From Alphaproteobacteria bacterium (GTDB lineage Bacteria; Pseudomonadota; Alphaproteobacteria; WRAU01; Hepatincolaceae), in the NCBI GenBank assembly GCA_009780035.1, contig WRAU01000002.1, positions 124,001 to 188,000 on the forward strand: a stretch of DNA of 64,000 nucleotides, given 5' to 3'. Both the position numbers and the translations under genes were made by a program. This document shows, piece after piece, positions 47,032 through 55,508 of the stretch. The notes below the pieces were generated by a model. The model saw only the letters and a list, made by a program, of their open reading frames with translations. It ran no database searches and was not told the origin of the DNA. Each line of letters begins with the position of its first letter. Within the stretch, counting starts at the first letter, position 1.

Positions 47032-47167
47032 TTTATTATTTCTTATGTTAATTTATAAATTATTTTGTTATTTGATATAGATTATTCTGCATAGAATAAT
47101 TATTTCCCTCTATAATTTTATTCCCTTTTATAGCAAAAATAAATACTGGATTCTTTATATAGGATAA

Positions 47168-47254
47168 TAAAAAAAGCTAGAATAATCTAGCTTTTTAATG
47201 TTATGATATATTATCTTGTTACGAGATTCTGAAACCTAATTTTTAATATGCTAC
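47168..47254 (-). ncRNA. tracrRNA of the type II-C system
   Basis: In the 373-bp gap between thiL and the array, the minus strand at about 47254..47231 matches 24 consecutive bases of the array's plus-strand repeat (starting TAGCATATTAAAAATT). An RNA made from it is therefore complementary to the crRNA repeat. The repeat's 5' part (GTTCGAGTT) pairs further after a two-base tracrRNA-side bulge, to CTCGTAAC. Downstream are a small hairpin (GATA-ATA-TATC) and a strong terminator ending in seven U. Promoter hexamers fit a start near 47252, so the RNA is about 85-90 nt. The rest of the gap (47040-47165 and 47290-47404) is AT-rich without recognised signals. Confidence 0.88.
47171..47196. terminator. 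tracrRNA terminator
   Basis: Perfect 11-bp stem AAAAAGCTAGA / TCTAGCTTTTT with a 4-base loop, followed by seven U on the minus strand. It marks the 3' end of the tracrRNA and could also end plus-strand transcripts. Confidence 0.85.
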
Positions 47255-47258
47255 TTAT

Positions 47259-47287
47259 ATAATAAATATTATTTTTTAGTTTGTCAA
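47259..47287 (-). promoter_or_regulatory. tracrRNA promoter
   Basis: Perfect -35 TTGACA (47287..47282), 17 bp, then TATTAT (47264..47259) on the minus strand. The predicted start falls at the beginning of the anti-repeat, so the tracrRNA has almost no 5' leader. Confidence 0.75.
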
Positions 47288-47404
47288 AATTTTAATATAT
47301 TTTATAAACAAATAAAATTAGAAGATTCTTTTATTAAAAACATGCATTTTTTATTTGCTAAAAACATTCCAACTTCAATAAAATTAACCCCTTCACTTGT
47401 TTAT

Positions 47405-49816
47405 ATTATAGCATATTAAAAATTAGGTTTCAACTCGAACCAGCTGCCTGTTTTAATTGTTCCTTGCGCTATTATAGCATATTAAAAATTAGGTTTCAAC
47501 TCGAACGGTTCAGTCCTGCTTTTGCCATATCGTTGAATTATAGCATATTAAAAATTAGGTTTCAACTCGAACTTCGTCCTCCTCTTAGTCCTATTACTTT
47601 ATATTATAGCATATTAAAAATTAGGTTTCAACTCGAACCCATATACTGCGCTGGGGAATACGACGATGATTATAGCATATTAAAAATTAGGTTTCAACTC
47701 GAACATTTGGAATATCGTTTAATCTAAATCCATTATTATAGCATATTAAAAATTAGGTTTCAACTCGAACATGGAATGTATCTCCCTCGTATTACTTTTA
47801 ATTATAGCATATTAAAAATTAGGTTTCAACTCGAACATCTCAAAGGCGGCTCTAAATCTTCATCATATTATAGCATATTAAAAATTAGGTTTCAACTCGA
47901 ACTGAGGATGATGTTCATAAAGATTTTGGACTATTATAGCATATTAAAAATTAGGTTTCAACTCGAACAGGCGGAACGAAAACTGTTATAGATTTTCAAT
48001 TATAGCATATTAAAAATTAGGTTTCAACTCGAACTATCCCTGGAAGCGGTAGAAGGTCCTTATCATTATAGCATATTAAAAATTAGGTTTCAACTCGAAC
48101 AAGAAATGAGGTCGCGGAAACTAATCAGGGATTATAGCATATTAAAAATTAGGTTTCAACTCGAACTATGTTTAATGTTTATGTATGTTTTTAATTATTA
48201 TAGCATATTAAAAATTAGGTTTCAACTCGAACGTTGCCTCCTTGAGCTCCACCTCCTTGTTGATTATAGCATATTAAAAATTAGGTTTCAACTCGAACTT
48301 GTTGTAAGTTAATGTGGCAAACATCGCTATTATAGCATATTAAAAATTAGGTTTCAACTCGAACCATACTCCGCCTGGTTTATCTTCTGCGCTGATTATA
48401 GCATATTAAAAATTAGGTTTCAACTCGAACGCAGCAATAGCCAATACTTTCTGGTGTAACATTATAGCATATTAAAAATTAGGTTTCAACTCGAACTGCT
48501 CCACATTTTATTTAGACCTTGCTGATATTATAGCATATTAAAAATTAGGTTTCAACTCGAACCCATGTTGTTTTATCCTTTTCAATTAATTCATTATAGC
48601 ATATTAAAAATTAGGTTTCAACTCGAACAGAGGAGCACAAACGACAAAAGCAACTTAAATTATAGCATATTAAAAATTAGGTTTCAACTCGAACCACTAA
48701 CGCTTATTTATCTATAGATGAAAAATTATAGCATATTAAAAATTAGGTTTCAACTCGAACCCAGATTACCTTGGTTGTTCTCGTCGTGGTATTATAGCAT
48801 ATTAAAAATTAGGTTTCAACTCGAACTTATGCGAAGGAGGTATATAAAGCCAATCAATTATAGCATATTAAAAATTAGGTTTCAACTCGAACAGTAGAGC
48901 TATTATGATTAAGGCTCTTAATATTATAGCATATTAAAAATTAGGTTTCAACTCGAACGATACATGATGATTTAAGGGCTGATATTCAATTATAGCATAT
49001 TAAAAATTAGGTTTCAACTCGAACAAACTCTCTTGACTTGCACTACTTAAAAAAATTATAGCATATTAAAAATTAGGTTTCAACTCGAACTGAATGAATG
49101 CTTATCTTCTAACATAGGAAAATTATAGCATATTAAAAATTAGGTTTCAACTCGAACTGCTGAGGCTAAAGAAAGAGCAAAGCACGAATTATAGCATATT
49201 AAAAATTAGGTTTCAACTCGAACTGGATTACCTGTAGCCATGTTTGGATTATTATTATAGCATATTAAAAATTAGGTTTCAACTCGAACTACTTAGTGGT
49301 TGCTTTTAATAGTGGCGATATTATAGCATATTAAAAATTAGGTTTCAACTCGAACGGTCTAGGCTATTAAATGGCTGATTTTCAATTATAGCATATTAAA
49401 AATTAGGTTTCAACTCGAACTTAACTCCCGGTGTAGAAACATAAAATTTAATTATAGCATATTAAAAATTAGGTTTCAACTCGAACGCCTCAACAGGTGG
49501 CTTAACCCATATATTTATTATAGCATATTAAAAATTAGGTTTCAACTCGAACAATGATCTTGTACCATCACCACCTGATGTAATTATAGCATATTAAAAA
49601 TTAGGTTTCAACTCGAACTAGTTTATCTTTACTACTAACAAGGTTATTATTATAGCATATTAAAAATTAGGTTTCAACTCGAACTTAAGAGATTTAGATA
49701 AAAAGAATATTTCTATTATAGCATATTAAAAATTAGGTTTCAACTCGAACAAAAGCTACTTCGGTAGAGTTTTCTTCCGGATTATAGCATATTAAAAATT
49801 AGGTTTCAACTCGAAC
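47405..49816 (-). CRISPR. type II-C CRISPR array, 37 repeats and 36 spacers
   Basis: Repeats are 36 bp and, read by eye, all identical; first 47405..47440, last 49781..49816. Spacers are 30 bp except one of 31 (49091..49121) and one of 29 (49356..49384). On the crRNA (minus) strand the repeat begins GTTCGAGTTGAAACC and ends ATATGCTATAAT. That end matches the form of Neisseria-type II-C repeats (GTTG...ACAAT). No repeat at either end is degenerate, so integration polarity cannot be read. The array begins 40 bp beyond cas2 and ends about 150 bp before the tracrRNA. All spacers are different; several read as protein-coding phage-like sequence. Confidence 0.99.
49781..49809 (-). promoter_or_regulatory. 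crRNA promoter inside the repeat (first of 37 copies)
   Basis: Within the repeat, minus strand: -35 TTGAAA (repeat bases 8-13; here 49809..49804), 17 bp, then TATAAT (repeat bases 31-36; here 49786..49781) with TGC just before it, an extended -10. It is present at the same place in every repeat because all are identical. The start would fall about base 7 of the following spacer, leaving a guide of about 24 nt. Confidence 0.7.
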
Positions 49817-49856
49817 CAAAACTTTTTAGATAAATATCTTTTTATAGTGAAAATTT

Positions 49857-50189
49857 TTAGAATAACATAAGTTGAGTCTCACTACCCTTAGTTTTTTTCT
49901 TTCGTCCTGTGAAACTTTTAATACTCTCATATTGTTTATCGGTAATACAAAATACATTAACATCACCATTTTCTGGCAAAGCATTTTGCACCACTTTTTC
50001 CATCCGCTGGGCGGTTTCTTTAGAAGCTGCCAACTTAATATACACAGAATATTGTAACTGTTTAAATCCCATATCTAACAGTGTATTACGAAATTCCCTA
50101 TACTTTTTTCGCTGCACTTTTTCTTCCGTTGGAAGATCAAACATTACAAACATCCACATAACCTGATACCCGCTTAATACTGTTTTCAT
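49857..50189 (-). CDS. cas2: CRISPR-associated protein Cas2
   Basis: 110-residue ferredoxin-fold partner of Cas1 in spacer acquisition. Core: MWMFVMFDLPTEEKVQRKKY (the conserved Asp in FDLP), FRNTLLDMGFKQLQYSVYIK, and ENGDVNVFCITDKQYESIKS. ATG 50189 overlaps the cas1 stop (ATGA). It ends 41 bp before the array. No cas4 or csn2 follows, which fixes the subtype as II-C. Confidence 0.96.
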   Translation of the reverse strand: MKTVLSGYQVMWMFVMFDLPTEEKVQRKKYREFRNTLLDMGFKQLQYSVYIKLAASKETAQRMEKVVQNALPENGDVNVFCITDKQYESIKSFTGRKKKTKGSETQLMLF

Positions 50190-51088
50190 AGTTTTAAATT
50201 AGCCAATTGAATATTTGGGCTTCCTTCTTTAAAGCAAGATACTAAATTTTGAGATATATAGTTAAAAACCCTAAAAATTGGTATATTTTGCTTTTTATAT
50301 ACCGTATCTAAAATTAAAATATCTGCTAATTCTTTTTTAATTTGCGGTGTTAAAATCCTATCTTCTTCATTTAGCACCATAGCTTTCACGGTATAATCCA
50401 CCAATGGACGATACGGCTCCATTAAATCATCAGCCAAGCAAAAATGATTGTAGGCATTTTTGTGAAATAACCCTAAAGATAAATTGAGCCCTGCCGCACA
50501 AAGCGACCGACAAACCGCACTCCGCAGCACCGTATAGCCATAATTCAGCATAACATTGGTAAGATCTGTAGATTGCTTGTCTCTTGTGAAATCTTTACCG
50601 AACATTTTATTAAAATAATATCTGGCAGCTTGGGCTTCAAGCCCTGTGCTATCGCCCGACTGAACATCATTTGCCATATTTTCTAAATACTTAGATTCAG
50701 TTTCATTAGTAGAATAATGCTGCAAAACATAGGCTTGGTTTTTAATTTTCTCTTGGATAATTTTTTGCCATAATCTTTTCTTTAAGGGCAGCGAGGCATT
50801 TATTTGGTTATCTAGCACTAATTTACTTTGATAATGACTGCTAAGCGGCAGCGAAATAGAAATCGGCAGATAATTACCACCGCAAATAATAAGCGGTATA
50901 TTGTGTTCTGCAAGCCGAACCATAATATTTTTAGATAAAGTGGAATCATTAGATGAAATAACCACCCCAGCGATTTCATCAAAGCTAACCCTGCCCATCT
51001 CAACGGAATTTTCTTCAATTAAAAGAAATCCCCGATAAAGACTAAGATAAGTGTTATCTTTATTAACCTCTATTATTTTTTGTATCAT
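50186..51088 (-). CDS. cas1: CRISPR-associated integrase Cas1
   Basis: 300-residue metal-dependent integrase that inserts new spacers with Cas2. Active-site residues are visible: Glu in STGLEAQAARYYF, His in GLFHKNAYNHFCLADDL and Asp/Glu in LMEPYRPLVDY. It begins 9 bp after cas9 (TAGGGC, ATG 51088) and overlaps cas2. Its stop is TGA, one of only two found among intact genes here. All residues needed for acquisition are intact, so the array can probably still grow. Confidence 0.97.
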   Translation of the reverse strand: MIQKIIEVNKDNTYLSLYRGFLLIEENSVEMGRVSFDEIAGVVISSNDSTLSKNIMVRLAEHNIPLIICGGNYLPISISLPLSSHYQSKLVLDNQINASLPLKKRLWQKIIQEKIKNQAYVLQHYSTNETESKYLENMANDVQSGDSTGLEAQAARYYFNKMFGKDFTRDKQSTDLTNVMLNYGYTVLRSAVCRSLCAAGLNLSLGLFHKNAYNHFCLADDLMEPYRPLVDYTVKAMVLNEEDRILTPQIKKELADILILDTVYKKQNIPIFRVFNYISQNLVSCFKEGSPNIQLANLKL

Positions 51089-51097
51089 TTTAATGCC

Positions 51098-54000
51098 CTA
51101 CTCACTGTTATTATTTTCCTCTGTTGATTCTTTGCTATTCTCTTGAGGATTATTATTTTCTTGAGATTTTTTATCTTTTTTAGCTTCTTTTTTCTTATCT
51201 TCCAGCCATGTTTTATACTCTTTAGGAAGGCTTTCCATTTGAATACCACGAATTTCACCATTTGGTAAAACAGCTACTTTTTTGAGATTGAAGAAGCTAT
51301 CATGTTCTTTAGGTTCTTTCCGTAAAACTGTGCTAATATTATAAGGTTGTTGTTTATTATCACTTAATAATAAAGGTCTTAAATCTAACCGACCACCTAA
51401 CCTTTGAAGTCCTTTAACAACAAACAAAAATTGAATATCTTTTTCACTATCAATTTTTCCATCTTCTTTTTTATAAGCAACTACGGTATCTTCTTTATGT
51501 AATCGCATTAAAAATTTTGGATTTTTATCTTTAGTTAATATTTCTTTAAAATTTTCACTATTTTTATAAGATTCAGCTCCCCTATTGCCCTTATGCTCAG
51601 CAAAATCTGCATATAAAATAAAATTACCTTGATAAGCAAAATTTTCTTGATTTGTTTTTCTATCAACCCCTTTGCTGATTTGATAAATATCCACACATTT
51701 ATAAGAATCAACAACATAGGCTTTATAAGGACTATCAGTTCCTTTAACATCTTTCGTGAATTGTGAATAAGTATCCTTACGCTTTTGCTTTTGATTTATC
51801 GGTTTAACGGTAGCATAGTATTTCAACGAAACCTTTTTAATGCCTCGATGTTCACCAAAAGTTTTTAATAAATTGCTTAATTCTTTGGCTTCCTTGCCCT
51901 TAGGCTCTTTAATCTCTTTTTTCAAGTTCCACATGTCAGTTTGAAAAACAGATAAACCATTTTCTGCCAAATATTTACGAATATCCATTCGCAAACTATC
52001 TTCTTCAGCATTATAAGGCTCTTCAGGGTTAGCTTTATAGTTTAAGCAAATTACACTAGATATATCTCCTAAAGATAACCCATCAATAGCTTTTCTTTCT
52101 TTTATTAAATATTGCCCCTCTTTATTTCTAATTACCTCTCCCTTGCTATCAAGCACAATACCATAAGCCGTATCTTTATAAAGTGCCGACTGTGTTTTAT
52201 GATTAACCTTAACACTTGGTATTATACTATTTAGAGATTCTTTCACTTTATTATAAAAATCTCCATATTTAATAAGGTCATTAGAAACACTATATTTTAA
52301 AATATCGCCCATTGCCGATTTTCGTTCTTTTAAATAAGCCTCACCAACAATTTTTTGCTCTTTAAACTTCTGCATTCTATTTTCTAATTCACCGCTAACC
52401 TTTTGCACAAGCCCTCTATTTATTAAAGCCACTGTGATAGCATCTAAACTATGGTGGCGATGATCGTCTCTATTCTTTTTATTTTCCTCATTTACATTTA
52501 ATATTTCATTCAAACCTAAATAATGACGGTAAGAACTGGTAATTTTTCCCTGCATACATACCACATTATGGTTATTTTCTACTAATGCTGATAAATACTG
52601 TTTTGCAACCTTAGTAATGTATCTTGTATCGTTCAGCTGATTGTTAGAAAAATTTTCCCGCAGTTTTTCGGCAATTTCATTGCCTGATGGCGTAAAACGA
52701 AGATATTTAGGATTCTTTTTACCATAAATTTTCTCGGCTCTTTTCACTAAATCATCATAATTATAATCCTTATGATTACTAAAAGCCTCATAAGGAGTTT
52801 TATTTTCTTTAATTTGATTACACTGACGGCAAACTAATACTAAGTTGGTAAAACTATCATCACCGGTTTGCGAAATTGGCAGAATATGGTCAACCTCAAC
52901 ATCTGTTGTATATCCTATGCTATCTCCACAATAAATACATTGTGCCTTTTCAACTTTTTGATTATCCTTAGGACTTTTTCTTAAATCATAACCTTGTTGT
53001 TCATACCATAATTTTAGTTTTCTATTTTCATCTCTACTAGCCTTATGACCTAATTCTTTATCTATGAATTCATTCCAATTTTTATTTATAAGATTTTTAT
53101 CATCTATTTCTTTTTTAGTTGCTGGCGAATTAATAATGTCCCGAGCCATTTCTAAATGAATATCGTCAAATTTAAAACCTTCGCCAAATTTTTTCTGCAT
53201 TTCCGCAATAATAGAATTAACCACAACCCTAATTTGATTCAACGCAATATGAACGGTGGGGTTATTAATTTTGCCGGTAGTTAGTTCTTTATGTGCTTGC
53301 GAACCATGTTTGGCGATGGCTTTTTTAGTTAAAGTTTGGTTGCCTCTTTTAATTTCTAAAGAAAGTTCAACATTACCATCAGATTTCAAAACAGGATCGC
53401 CATAAATTTCACCGGTTAAAGAATTCTTTAATACTTCCAAATCCCCATAGTATGGCAATTCATATTTTACAGTTGGCAACACTCCTTTTTCTTCTGCATG
53501 GCTATAGCTTGGATAAACCTGTTCTATTATTTTATCTATAGTGCCATTTGTATTTTCCCAAGCATCTATTAATTTTAACAAGGCTTTATTGCTATAGTTG
53601 GCATAGCCTTTTTCTTTAGTCAATTCGGTAAAAATTGTTTTAGGAGTTTTAGTTGTGCCTTTTTCTATAAATAAATTATCTAGTTCTCCTAGATTTTGCC
53701 ATTTTGTATAAAAATCTTCTTTTTTATTTTCATTAATATCTAAAAACTCTAAATCTAAAATATCTTTAACTAATTTATCCTGACTTTCTAAGGTAAGATT
53801 AGACCACTTATCACCCAAGCAAGAATTCATAACCGCAAAAGTATTATTGCTTTTCATTAAAACATTATCATCTTTGACTTTCCAGTTAGTTTTTAAGATT
53901 TTGTCTTTATATTCTTTACCTAAAGAATCTTGCAATTTCTTTAAAGTTAAATTTTCTTGATTAATAATGTTTAATAAATCTTCTTTTTGTTTTTGATTGA

Positions 54001-55189
54001 GGTTTTTATAGCTAGGTTTGTCAGATTCACTATCCACAAAATCATATTGCAGGTTATTTAAAAACTGCAAACTGCGGAATTTTTGAAAAATCGGGCTAGT
54101 TTTAGGAGCTACCTTCTCATCTTCCTCAAGAACGCAATTCTCTATTAAATGCTCTTTAGACTGCAGCGGATATTGCTTAAAAATAATATCATGTATTCTA
54201 TTCCATTGATTTACAGAAATTGGCAAACTGGCTTTTTGCGATAATTCTTTAATTCTTTCAAATTCATCCTCATACATCTCTCTACTTGCAAAATACTCAC
54301 CCTCTGGAGTAAACCGCACGGCTTTTTGGGCGGTAAAGTTAGTTTCTTTAATTTTTTCATTTTCTAAATATTGTTTATATAAAAACTGCCCTAAGGTTAA
54401 ATTTCCATCTTTTAAGATTTTTGCTAAATGCGGAATTCCCTTTTTAATGCGGCTTAATTCATCATTTAAACCTTTAGCATTCTTTATTTCACGAAAAATA
54501 TTAATTTTTTTAGTATCTTTCTTAAATTTTATCTCTTTTTCAAATTCAAAACCCTCTAATTGCCATTTATTAAAAAATTCTTGTTTTTTATTGGTATCAT
54601 TTTTATAAGTTTCAAGGGATAAAATATCTGCTACAAATTTTTCTTTTTCTTCTTCAGTAAGATTATTAAATTTATTATCCTCACCTAAAAATTCTTCCAT
54701 TACCTTTAAAATGTTTTTATATTCTTCAGCTTTAATCTTTGCTAAATCTGGCTTAATTATAGAATTATCATAATAACCTCTATGCTTATTAAGGTGAAGA
54801 ATCGCCCGCAGAACTTTATTTAATTCCGGATTGTTTGAAACTGCATTAGCTCTGGCTTCATAAGCATTTAGCGTATAAACATGAGTGTCTAAATTTTCTT
54901 GAGAAATAATATTTTCTTTAAGCAGATAGCTATTTAAAAGTTTAACCCGATTGATTTTTCTTTGCTTCTGCTTGCGCTGAGCTTTAATAGTTGAACGAGA
55001 TGCCGCTAAACTTACTTTAGAATCCGGTTCTCTGCCATCGCTAAAAAGCCTAACACCAGACTTTACTATTTCAAGCGGAACATCTACGGTATTTTGTTGG
55101 GATTCAGTAATAACCTCGCCCTCAAAAGAAACAACCGCCCAGCCAATGCTATTAGTGCCAATATCTAAACCTAACTTATACTTTTTCAT
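51098..55189 (-). CDS. cas9: RNA-guided endonuclease Cas9 (type II-C operon, long form)
   Basis: Dual-RNA-guided DNA nuclease. I use ATG 55189 (1363 residues, behind AAGG), not the TTG just before it. RuvC-I: KLGLDIGTNSIGWAVV (Asp9). Arg-rich bridge helix about 60-89. Helical recognition lobe about 90-650. RuvC-II: HLEMARD (Glu680). HNH: EVDHILPISQ (Asp767, His768) and Asn791, framed by CIYC (751-754) and CRQC (787-790), which could bind zinc. RuvC-III: DDHRHHSLDAITVA (His913, Asp916). PAM-interacting region about 1050-1320, then a Lys/Glu/Asn-rich tail. All catalytic residues are present. It is longer than most II-C Cas9 (about 1000-1150) and nearer the Bacteroidetes long forms. Confidence 0.97.
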   Translation of the reverse strand: MKKYKLGLDIGTNSIGWAVVSFEGEVITESQQNTVDVPLEIVKSGVRLFSDGREPDSKVSLAASRSTIKAQRKQKQRKINRVKLLNSYLLKENIISQENLDTHVYTLNAYEARANAVSNNPELNKVLRAILHLNKHRGYYDNSIIKPDLAKIKAEEYKNILKVMEEFLGEDNKFNNLTEEEKEKFVADILSLETYKNDTNKKQEFFNKWQLEGFEFEKEIKFKKDTKKINIFREIKNAKGLNDELSRIKKGIPHLAKILKDGNLTLGQFLYKQYLENEKIKETNFTAQKAVRFTPEGEYFASREMYEDEFERIKELSQKASLPISVNQWNRIHDIIFKQYPLQSKEHLIENCVLEEDEKVAPKTSPIFQKFRSLQFLNNLQYDFVDSESDKPSYKNLNQKQKEDLLNIINQENLTLKKLQDSLGKEYKDKILKTNWKVKDDNVLMKSNNTFAVMNSCLGDKWSNLTLESQDKLVKDILDLEFLDINENKKEDFYTKWQNLGELDNLFIEKGTTKTPKTIFTELTKEKGYANYSNKALLKLIDAWENTNGTIDKIIEQVYPSYSHAEEKGVLPTVKYELPYYGDLEVLKNSLTGEIYGDPVLKSDGNVELSLEIKRGNQTLTKKAIAKHGSQAHKELTTGKINNPTVHIALNQIRVVVNSIIAEMQKKFGEGFKFDDIHLEMARDIINSPATKKEIDDKNLINKNWNEFIDKELGHKASRDENRKLKLWYEQQGYDLRKSPKDNQKVEKAQCIYCGDSIGYTTDVEVDHILPISQTGDDSFTNLVLVCRQCNQIKENKTPYEAFSNHKDYNYDDLVKRAEKIYGKKNPKYLRFTPSGNEIAEKLRENFSNNQLNDTRYITKVAKQYLSALVENNHNVVCMQGKITSSYRHYLGLNEILNVNEENKKNRDDHRHHSLDAITVALINRGLVQKVSGELENRMQKFKEQKIVGEAYLKERKSAMGDILKYSVSNDLIKYGDFYNKVKESLNSIIPSVKVNHKTQSALYKDTAYGIVLDSKGEVIRNKEGQYLIKERKAIDGLSLGDISSVICLNYKANPEEPYNAEEDSLRMDIRKYLAENGLSVFQTDMWNLKKEIKEPKGKEAKELSNLLKTFGEHRGIKKVSLKYYATVKPINQKQKRKDTYSQFTKDVKGTDSPYKAYVVDSYKCVDIYQISKGVDRKTNQENFAYQGNFILYADFAEHKGNRGAESYKNSENFKEILTKDKNPKFLMRLHKEDTVVAYKKEDGKIDSEKDIQFLFVVKGLQRLGGRLDLRPLLLSDNKQQPYNISTVLRKEPKEHDSFFNLKKVAVLPNGEIRGIQMESLPKEYKTWLEDKKKEAKKDKKSQENNNPQENSKESTEENNNSE

Positions 55190-55337
55190 CAAACCACCTT
55201 ATATTTACAATTTTTTACATTACTAAAAAAATACATCATACAGCACAAAATTGCAATACAATTATAAGATGCAATTAGTTAATAAAGTGTTAATATAGCA
55301 AGCTATCGAATCTGTATAACTTAAATAATTTATATCT

Positions 55338-55349
55338 GTTTTATAAAAC
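55338..55349. promoter_or_regulatory. palindrome GTTTTATAAAAC, candidate operator 1
   Basis: A perfect 12-bp palindrome, half-site GTTTTA, 160 bp upstream of the glucuronidase ATG. It shares its half-site with the palindrome at 55451. AT-rich context makes chance occurrence possible for either one alone. Confidence 0.4.
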
Positions 55350-55450
55350 ACATTAAAAACAATCTCCATACCAATCTCAACAAACAAAAGAACTGCACAA
55401 CAAAATGCCAATGTTAAAAAAATATCACTTTACATCTCATTGCTATATAT

Positions 55451-55467
55451 GTTTTAATTAATAAAAC
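55451..55467. promoter_or_regulatory. palindrome GTTTTAATTAATAAAAC, candidate operator 2
   Basis: A perfect 6-bp inverted repeat (GTTTTA / TAAAAC) with a 5-bp centre, 41 bp upstream of the glucuronidase start, where a repressor would block the promoter. Same half-site as at 55338. Confidence 0.45.
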
Positions 55468-55508
55468 TAATTTTTATAAAATGAAATTAATTAAAGCAGG
55501 AGACTATT

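What the first reader, a model, noticed from the sequence alone, without database searches (positions are those of the whole stretch)
47168..47287. Complete tracrRNA gene located beyond the array
A minus-strand gene with TTGACA-17-TATTAT promoter, a 24-base perfect anti-repeat, a bulged lower duplex to CTCGTAAC, a small stem and an 11-bp terminator hairpin lies on the far side of the array from cas2. The order cas9-cas1-cas2-array-tracrRNA, all on one strand, makes a self-contained compact cassette. The anti-repeat has drifted only where the repeat's embedded -10 lies, so it no longer has a promoter in the opposite direction.
Basis: seen in the sequence. Interest (0 to 1): 0.7.

Follow-up and report, generated by a model that had tools for sequence, protein, structure and literature searches.

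The report
CRISPR tracrRNA gene beyond flipped array
The sequence is the guide-partner RNA (tracrRNA) gene of an ordinary Cas9 (type II-C) immune system, but the CRISPR array and this gene face the same way as the cas genes, the opposite of the layout in every comparable relative examined, probably because that block flipped in this lineage.

Summary
A minus-strand tracrRNA gene lies at about 47253-47165. It has a TTGACA-17-TATTAT promoter, the only anti-repeat in the 1.42-Mb genome (24/24), a bulged lower duplex and an 11-bp terminator. The lower duplex is supported by covariation with relatives: 97% of cells paired, 5 of 7 pairs with changes on both sides, 0/500 shuffles as good. A model built from relatives without this window aligns here in register, though weakly (11.5 bits).

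It is in fact the exception. In 52 other proteobacterial type II-C loci with an array beside cas2, no array runs with the cas genes, and in 50 of them a tracrRNA sits just upstream of cas9, divergent. The sister genus has the tracrRNA beside cas2, opposite to cas9. The window therefore looks like an inversion of an array-tracrRNA block. Such a flip should be tolerated because every repeat carries its own promoter (TTGAAA-17-TATAAT).

Verdict: a normal tracrRNA in an unusual locus layout. Transcription was not tested.

The parts
47259..47287 (-). tracrRNA promoter TTGACA-17-TATTAT
   Evidence: a TTGAC lies 25-60 nt upstream of the anti-repeat in 25 of 51 loci (this one included) against 3.4% of random stretches; sister genus also has TTGACA
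47230..47253 (-). anti-repeat, 24/24 complementary to repeat positions 9-32; predicted transcript start at about 47253-47252
   Evidence: start inferred from spacing to the -10
47218..47225 (-). lower-duplex strand CTCGTAAC (one bulged U), pairs with repeat positions 1-7 GTTCGAG
47205..47215 (-). small stem GATA-ATA-TATC (nexus-like)
   Evidence: sequence; aligns with the relatives' tracrRNA model; not the minimum-energy fold
47165..47196 (-). intrinsic terminator, 11-bp hairpin plus T-rich tail
47288..47404 (-). intervening segment between the promoter-side end of the array and the tracrRNA promoter; presumed leader side; no terminator found
   Evidence: the side is inferred from relatives and PMC12080349
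47405..49816 (-). CRISPR array: 37 identical repeats GTTCGAGTTGAAACCTAATTTTTAATATGCTATAAT (each with TTGAAA-17-TATAAT), 36 spacers
49817..49856 (-). [quoted passage not shown]
49857..50189 (-). cas2
   Evidence: TIGR01573 and PADLOC Cas2_II
50186..51088 (-). cas1, type II
   Evidence: TIGR03639, 284 bits, cut-off 120
51098..55192 (-). cas9, 1364 aa
   Evidence: TIGR01865, 422 bits, cut-off 100; RuvC and HNH domains; closest solved sequences are about 1080-1100-aa Cas9 proteins

Best explanation
The feature is the single tracrRNA gene of a type II-C CRISPR-Cas9 locus. Its transcript (about 85-90 nt, predicted) pairs with the repeat part of each crRNA through a 24-bp upper duplex and a 7-bp bulged lower duplex. 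RNase III then trims the duplex and Cas9 uses the dual RNA. Each repeat carries its own promoter, so crRNAs start inside spacers and need no leader promoter. The whole array-tracrRNA block lies in the reverse of the usual type II-C orientation relative to cas9-cas1-cas2, most simply through one inversion in this lineage. Shown here: sequence elements, uniqueness, covariation, layout of relatives, RNase III gene. Inferred: transcription, processing, inversion as the event, leader side.
For: Promoter, anti-repeat and terminator in register. Only anti-repeat in the genome. Lower duplex covaries: 97.3% of cells paired, 5/7 pairs with changes on both sides, 14 such cells against 2.8 shuffled, 0/500 shuffles as good, register shifts of 1-3 columns collapse it to 15-49%. 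The window repeat pairs 7/7 with its own tracrRNA but 3-5/7 with those of relatives. A model built without the window aligns to 47226-47166 in register (11.5 bits, E 0.012 over 551 bases, unfiltered) and to the sister's tracrRNA (25.2 bits). Repeat promoter TTGAAA-17-TATAAT, 11/12. RNase III gene present. Cas families over cut-off. Layout: 0 of 52 other loci have a cas-codirectional array; 50 have a tracrRNA upstream of cas9 and divergent (two outputs corrected by hand). Sister genus has tracrRNA next to cas2 on the opposite strand. Window and sister group with support 1.0 in both Cas1 and Cas9 trees.
Against: No RNA data. The relatives' model does not find the window tracrRNA with default filters at E up to 10. 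The nexus stem is not the minimum-energy fold. The sister's array is on a different contig from its cas genes, so its orientation relative to cas is inferred. No inverted repeats beyond chance flank the block to show how it inverted. The leader motif of relatives is at best weak here (P about 0.04 per site for the best of four offsets tried).
Confidence: 0.9

Rival explanations
1. Assembly artefact: the array-tracrRNA block is really in the usual orientation and was flipped by the assembler.
For: The layout is matched by none of 52 loci, and the repetitive array is a known hazard for assembly; the sister genome's array is broken at a contig end.
Against: No inverted repeat beyond chance (9 nt; shuffles 7-11) joins the two flanks. 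The block sits inside a 188-kb contig with 36 distinct spacers. Even in the opposite orientation it would not have the usual layout, because the tracrRNA would lie between cas2 and the array.
Confidence: 0.06
2. A dead or degenerate remnant: an inverted repeat copy left by a past rearrangement, not an expressed RNA.
For: No transcript data; the tail scores low against relatives.
Against: 24/24 match kept in register with promoter and terminator. The lower stem changed together with the repeat, including a G-U to C-G change at pair 4 that is unique in the sample. No other anti-repeat in the genome. cas genes intact, all 37 repeats identical.
Confidence: 0.03
3. The same rearrangement, but by moving and inverting the cas operon rather than by inverting the array-tracrRNA block.
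For: Array and tracrRNA are on one strand in all arrangements compared; only the cas operon changes place and strand relative to them. Neighbouring genes differ between the window and the sister genome.
Against: It needs at least as many steps as a local inversion of the sister-like layout; no synteny was found that decides.
Confidence: 0.3
4. One reading: the anti-repeat lost the -10 complement under selection to avoid a promoter firing towards the array on the + strand.
For: No 11/12 promoter reads on the + strand at the anti-repeat.
Against: The complement ends where the predicted transcript starts, so no selection is needed. A TATAAT remains on the + strand at 47258-47263. Relatives such as L102, L103 and L112 keep the -10 complement in their anti-repeat.
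Confidence: 0.08

Closest known systems
Campylobacter jejuni type II-C locus (PMC3656092, PMC4607530)
   Same: Three cas genes; a -10 box in the 3' part of every 36-nt repeat; tracrRNA with its own promoter located downstream of the array, with a 24-nt perfect anti-repeat.
   Different: In C. jejuni the array is antisense to and convergent with the cas genes. Here the array and tracrRNA run with the cas genes and the cas operon lies upstream of the array. Cas9 is 1364 aa here.
Type II-C loci of other Proteobacteria (52 loci, including a Neisseria-type repeat, L101)
   Same: cas9-cas1-cas2 operon, 36-nt repeats, same bulged lower duplex, same tracrRNA motif (U)AACAAG and terminator.
   Different: Their tracrRNA lies upstream of cas9 and divergent, and their array opposes the cas genes; the window has neither.
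Sister genus G002 (L042, L095, L096)
   Same: Cas9 and Cas1 group with the window's at support 1.0; nearly the same repeat end; tracrRNA next to the presumed leader side, with TTGACA promoter and terminator.
   Different: tracrRNA lies next to cas2 on the opposite strand to cas; its array is on another contig.
Type II-A loci such as Streptococcus (PMC3936727)
   Same: Array runs with the cas operon.
   Different: No csn2 here, promoters are in the repeats, and the tracrRNA is at the far end of the array; not a II-A system.

Membership tests
Type II-C CRISPR-Cas | cas9, cas1, cas2 and no fourth cas gene (csn2 or cas4) in the operon | tested here: met
   only these three between the array and the divergent beta-glucuronidase gene
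Type II-C CRISPR-Cas | Cas1 and Cas9 fall among II-C sequences | tested here: met
   group with sister and proteobacterial three-gene loci; closest solved sequences are about 1080-1100-aa Cas9 proteins (that these are II-C Cas9s rests on my own knowledge)
[quoted passage not shown]
   TTGAAA-17-TATAAT, 11/12, in the repeats scanned; all 37 repeats identical
Type II-C CRISPR-Cas | array transcribed opposite to the cas operon (usual, not strictly defining; PMC6737040, PMC3936727) | tested here: not met
   array codirectional with cas; 0 of 52 others are
tracrRNA | anti-repeat complementary to the array repeat | tested here: met
   24/24, unique in the genome
tracrRNA | lower duplex, bulge, nexus and terminator in order | tested here: met
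   the nexus stem itself is weak
tracrRNA | own promoter | tested here: met
   (sequence only)
tracrRNA | transcribed and trimmed with crRNA by RNase III | not testable with these tools
   RNase III gene present; no RNA data

The most novel reading that the evidence does not exclude
A naturally inverted type II-C locus that could form one transcription unit cas9-cas1-cas2-array-tracrRNA with no recognised terminator before the tracrRNA terminator. Read-through from the cas operon would add a long precursor to the repeat-driven crRNAs, and spacer uptake would occur at the end far from cas2, next to the tracrRNA.
Probability: 0.3. Interest if true: 0.5.

Novelty: new variant of a known kind. Interest (0 to 1): 0.35.

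Why it matters
It gives a natural exception to the stated rule that type II-C arrays always oppose their cas genes, so orientation predictors that rely on that rule would call this array backwards. It also fits the idea that repeat-borne promoters free the array from any fixed place or direction, which could be tested by comparing crRNA output and spacer uptake in the flipped and usual layouts.

Tried and rejected
Rfam scan of the window: no family at gathering score. Searches of genome contigs with Cas9 and Cas1 gave one locus, L013, which has the usual layout. The order holds only four genomes, two with Cas9. DNA search of plasmids for the tracrRNA region: nothing. Looking for a second anti-repeat upstream of cas9 in the window: none. 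Looking for inverted repeats that would explain an inversion or a misassembly: none beyond chance. Testing whether the leader motif of relatives marks one end of the array: weak for the tracrRNA side, nothing on the cas2 side. Exact and degenerate searches of viral contigs with one spacer: no match. One survey row (L065) was printed as codirectional because its consensus repeat was truncated; with its tracrRNA upstream of cas9 on the divergent strand it is the usual layout.

Full report
Observation. The minus strand from 47287 to about 47165 reads: TTGACA, 17 nt, TATTAT, five bases, then TAGCATATTAAAAATTAGGTTTCA (47253-47230), GAAT, CTCGTAAC (47225-47218), AA, a possible small stem GATA-ATA-TATC (47215-47205), and an 11-bp hairpin with a T-rich tail (47196-47165). 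The 24-nt anti-repeat is perfect. A whole-genome search allowing three mismatches finds 37 array copies and this single copy on the other strand, and nothing with the reversed control pattern. Elsewhere in the window the longest exact match to the repeat is 12 nt, as expected from simulated sequence. The array has 37 identical 36-nt repeats and 36 spacers of 29-31 nt at 47405-49816. cas2, cas1 and cas9 follow on the same strand and score over the curated cut-offs.

Is it a tracrRNA? The most direct test is co-variation between repeat and tracrRNA. The lower duplex of the window pairs repeat GTTCGAG with CTCGTAAC, 7 of 7 with one bulged U. Sixteen distinct repeat/tracrRNA pairs from the window and its relatives give 97.3% paired cells, five of seven pairs changed on both sides, and a score no shuffle reaches (0/500). 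Sliding the partners by one to three columns drops pairing to 15-49%. The window's repeat pairs with only 3-5 of 7 bases of other tracrRNAs. A covariance model made from 17 relatives, without the window, matches the sister genus (25.2 bits) and L013 (19.5 bits). It aligns the window in the right register when filters are off (11.5 bits, E 0.012 over 551 bases), but it does not report the window with default filters. TTGAC lies 25-60 nt upstream of the anti-repeat in 25 of 51 loci, the window and sister among them, against 3.4% of random stretches. The genome has an RNase III gene. Together these make a tracrRNA assignment very likely; transcription was not shown.

How it works. Every repeat holds TTGAAA-17-TATAAT (11/12). 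Such repeat promoters start crRNAs inside the spacers in Campylobacter jejuni (PMC3656092). By analogy the crRNAs here start a few bases into each spacer and end in the next repeat, pair with this tracrRNA, are trimmed by RNase III and load Cas9. One spacer (48497-48526) encodes QQGLNKMWS and matches the major capsid gene of two microviruses at 26 of 30 bases at the same conserved motif, which suggests but does not prove a phage target (BLAST E 0.7).

What is unusual. I compared 52 other proteobacterial loci that have a cas9-cas1-cas2 cluster with an array beside cas2. None has the array running with the cas genes. In 50 a tracrRNA lies upstream of cas9 and divergent from it; in two (L055, L122) no tracrRNA was identified. 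The script's own tally was 48 and 3 for opposite arrays and one codirectional. I corrected L065, whose consensus repeat was truncated and whose anti-repeat lies upstream of cas9 on the strand opposite to cas, and L067, whose anti-repeat is 515 bp upstream, just past the 500-bp limit. Published rules agree: type II-C arrays oppose the cas operon (PMC3936727, PMC6737040). The window is therefore an exception in both array direction and tracrRNA place.

Where it came from. Cas1 and Cas9 trees put the window and the sister genus G002 together with support 1.0, next to loci of the usual layout. In G002 the tracrRNA lies directly after cas2 on the opposite strand, the tracrRNA-downstream-of-array order known from C. 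jejuni (PMC4607530), and its array sits on another contig with its promoter end facing the break. Flipping a block array-tracrRNA in that layout gives the window's order. Moving the cas operon instead is also possible and I cannot separate the two. No inverted repeat beyond chance flanks the block.

Consequences. In relatives the sequence after the last repeat carries a conserved NTAAGCCCTTGA-like motif at +9/+10 in 46 of 50, and 26 of 50 have a terminator-like hairpin within 75 nt against 3.6% of random stretches. The window has no such terminator between cas2 and the array or between the array and the tracrRNA. Cas transcripts could thus run through the array to the tracrRNA terminator, and the last repeat's promoter could add to tracrRNA output. 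Type II-C spacers are added at the promoter-side repeat (PMC12080349), so uptake would be expected at 47404, away from cas2. These are inferences.

The anti-repeat is said to have drifted only at the -10 to lose a reverse promoter. The match ends where the transcript is predicted to start, the other end of the match also departs (internal loop and bulge), a TATAAT remains on the + strand at 47258-47263, and relatives such as L102, L103 and L112 keep the -10 complement. I do not support that reading.

Verdict. An ordinary tracrRNA and an ordinary type II-C system in an unusual arrangement: a new variant of a known kind, interest 0.35.

Noticed in passing
window 48497-48526 (-): Spacer encoding QQGLNKMWS matches, 26 of 30 bases, the conserved TYQQGLNRMWSR motif of the major capsid gene of two microviruses (PV067905.1, MK496745.1).
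   Followed up: partly
first 25 nt after the last repeat in 50 relatives (e.g. L063, L066, L072): Conserved NTAAGCCCTTGA-like leader motif at a fixed +9/+10 offset, often part of a terminator hairpin that would stop transcripts from the last repeat promoter before cas2.
   Followed up: partly
window 51098-55192: Cas9 is 1364 aa, longer than the 1050-1215 aa open frames of the best-matching class relatives; cause of the extra length not examined.
   Followed up: no
window 55193-55508: The usual place of the tracrRNA upstream of cas9 is here a 316-bp divergent gap shared with a beta-glucuronidase-like gene; no anti-repeat remnant.
   Followed up: yes
window 49782-49817: The oldest (cas2-side) repeat is identical to all others, whereas about 60% of type II-C arrays have a mutated oldest repeat (PMC12080349); it may have been cut at this end when the block moved.
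   Followed up: no
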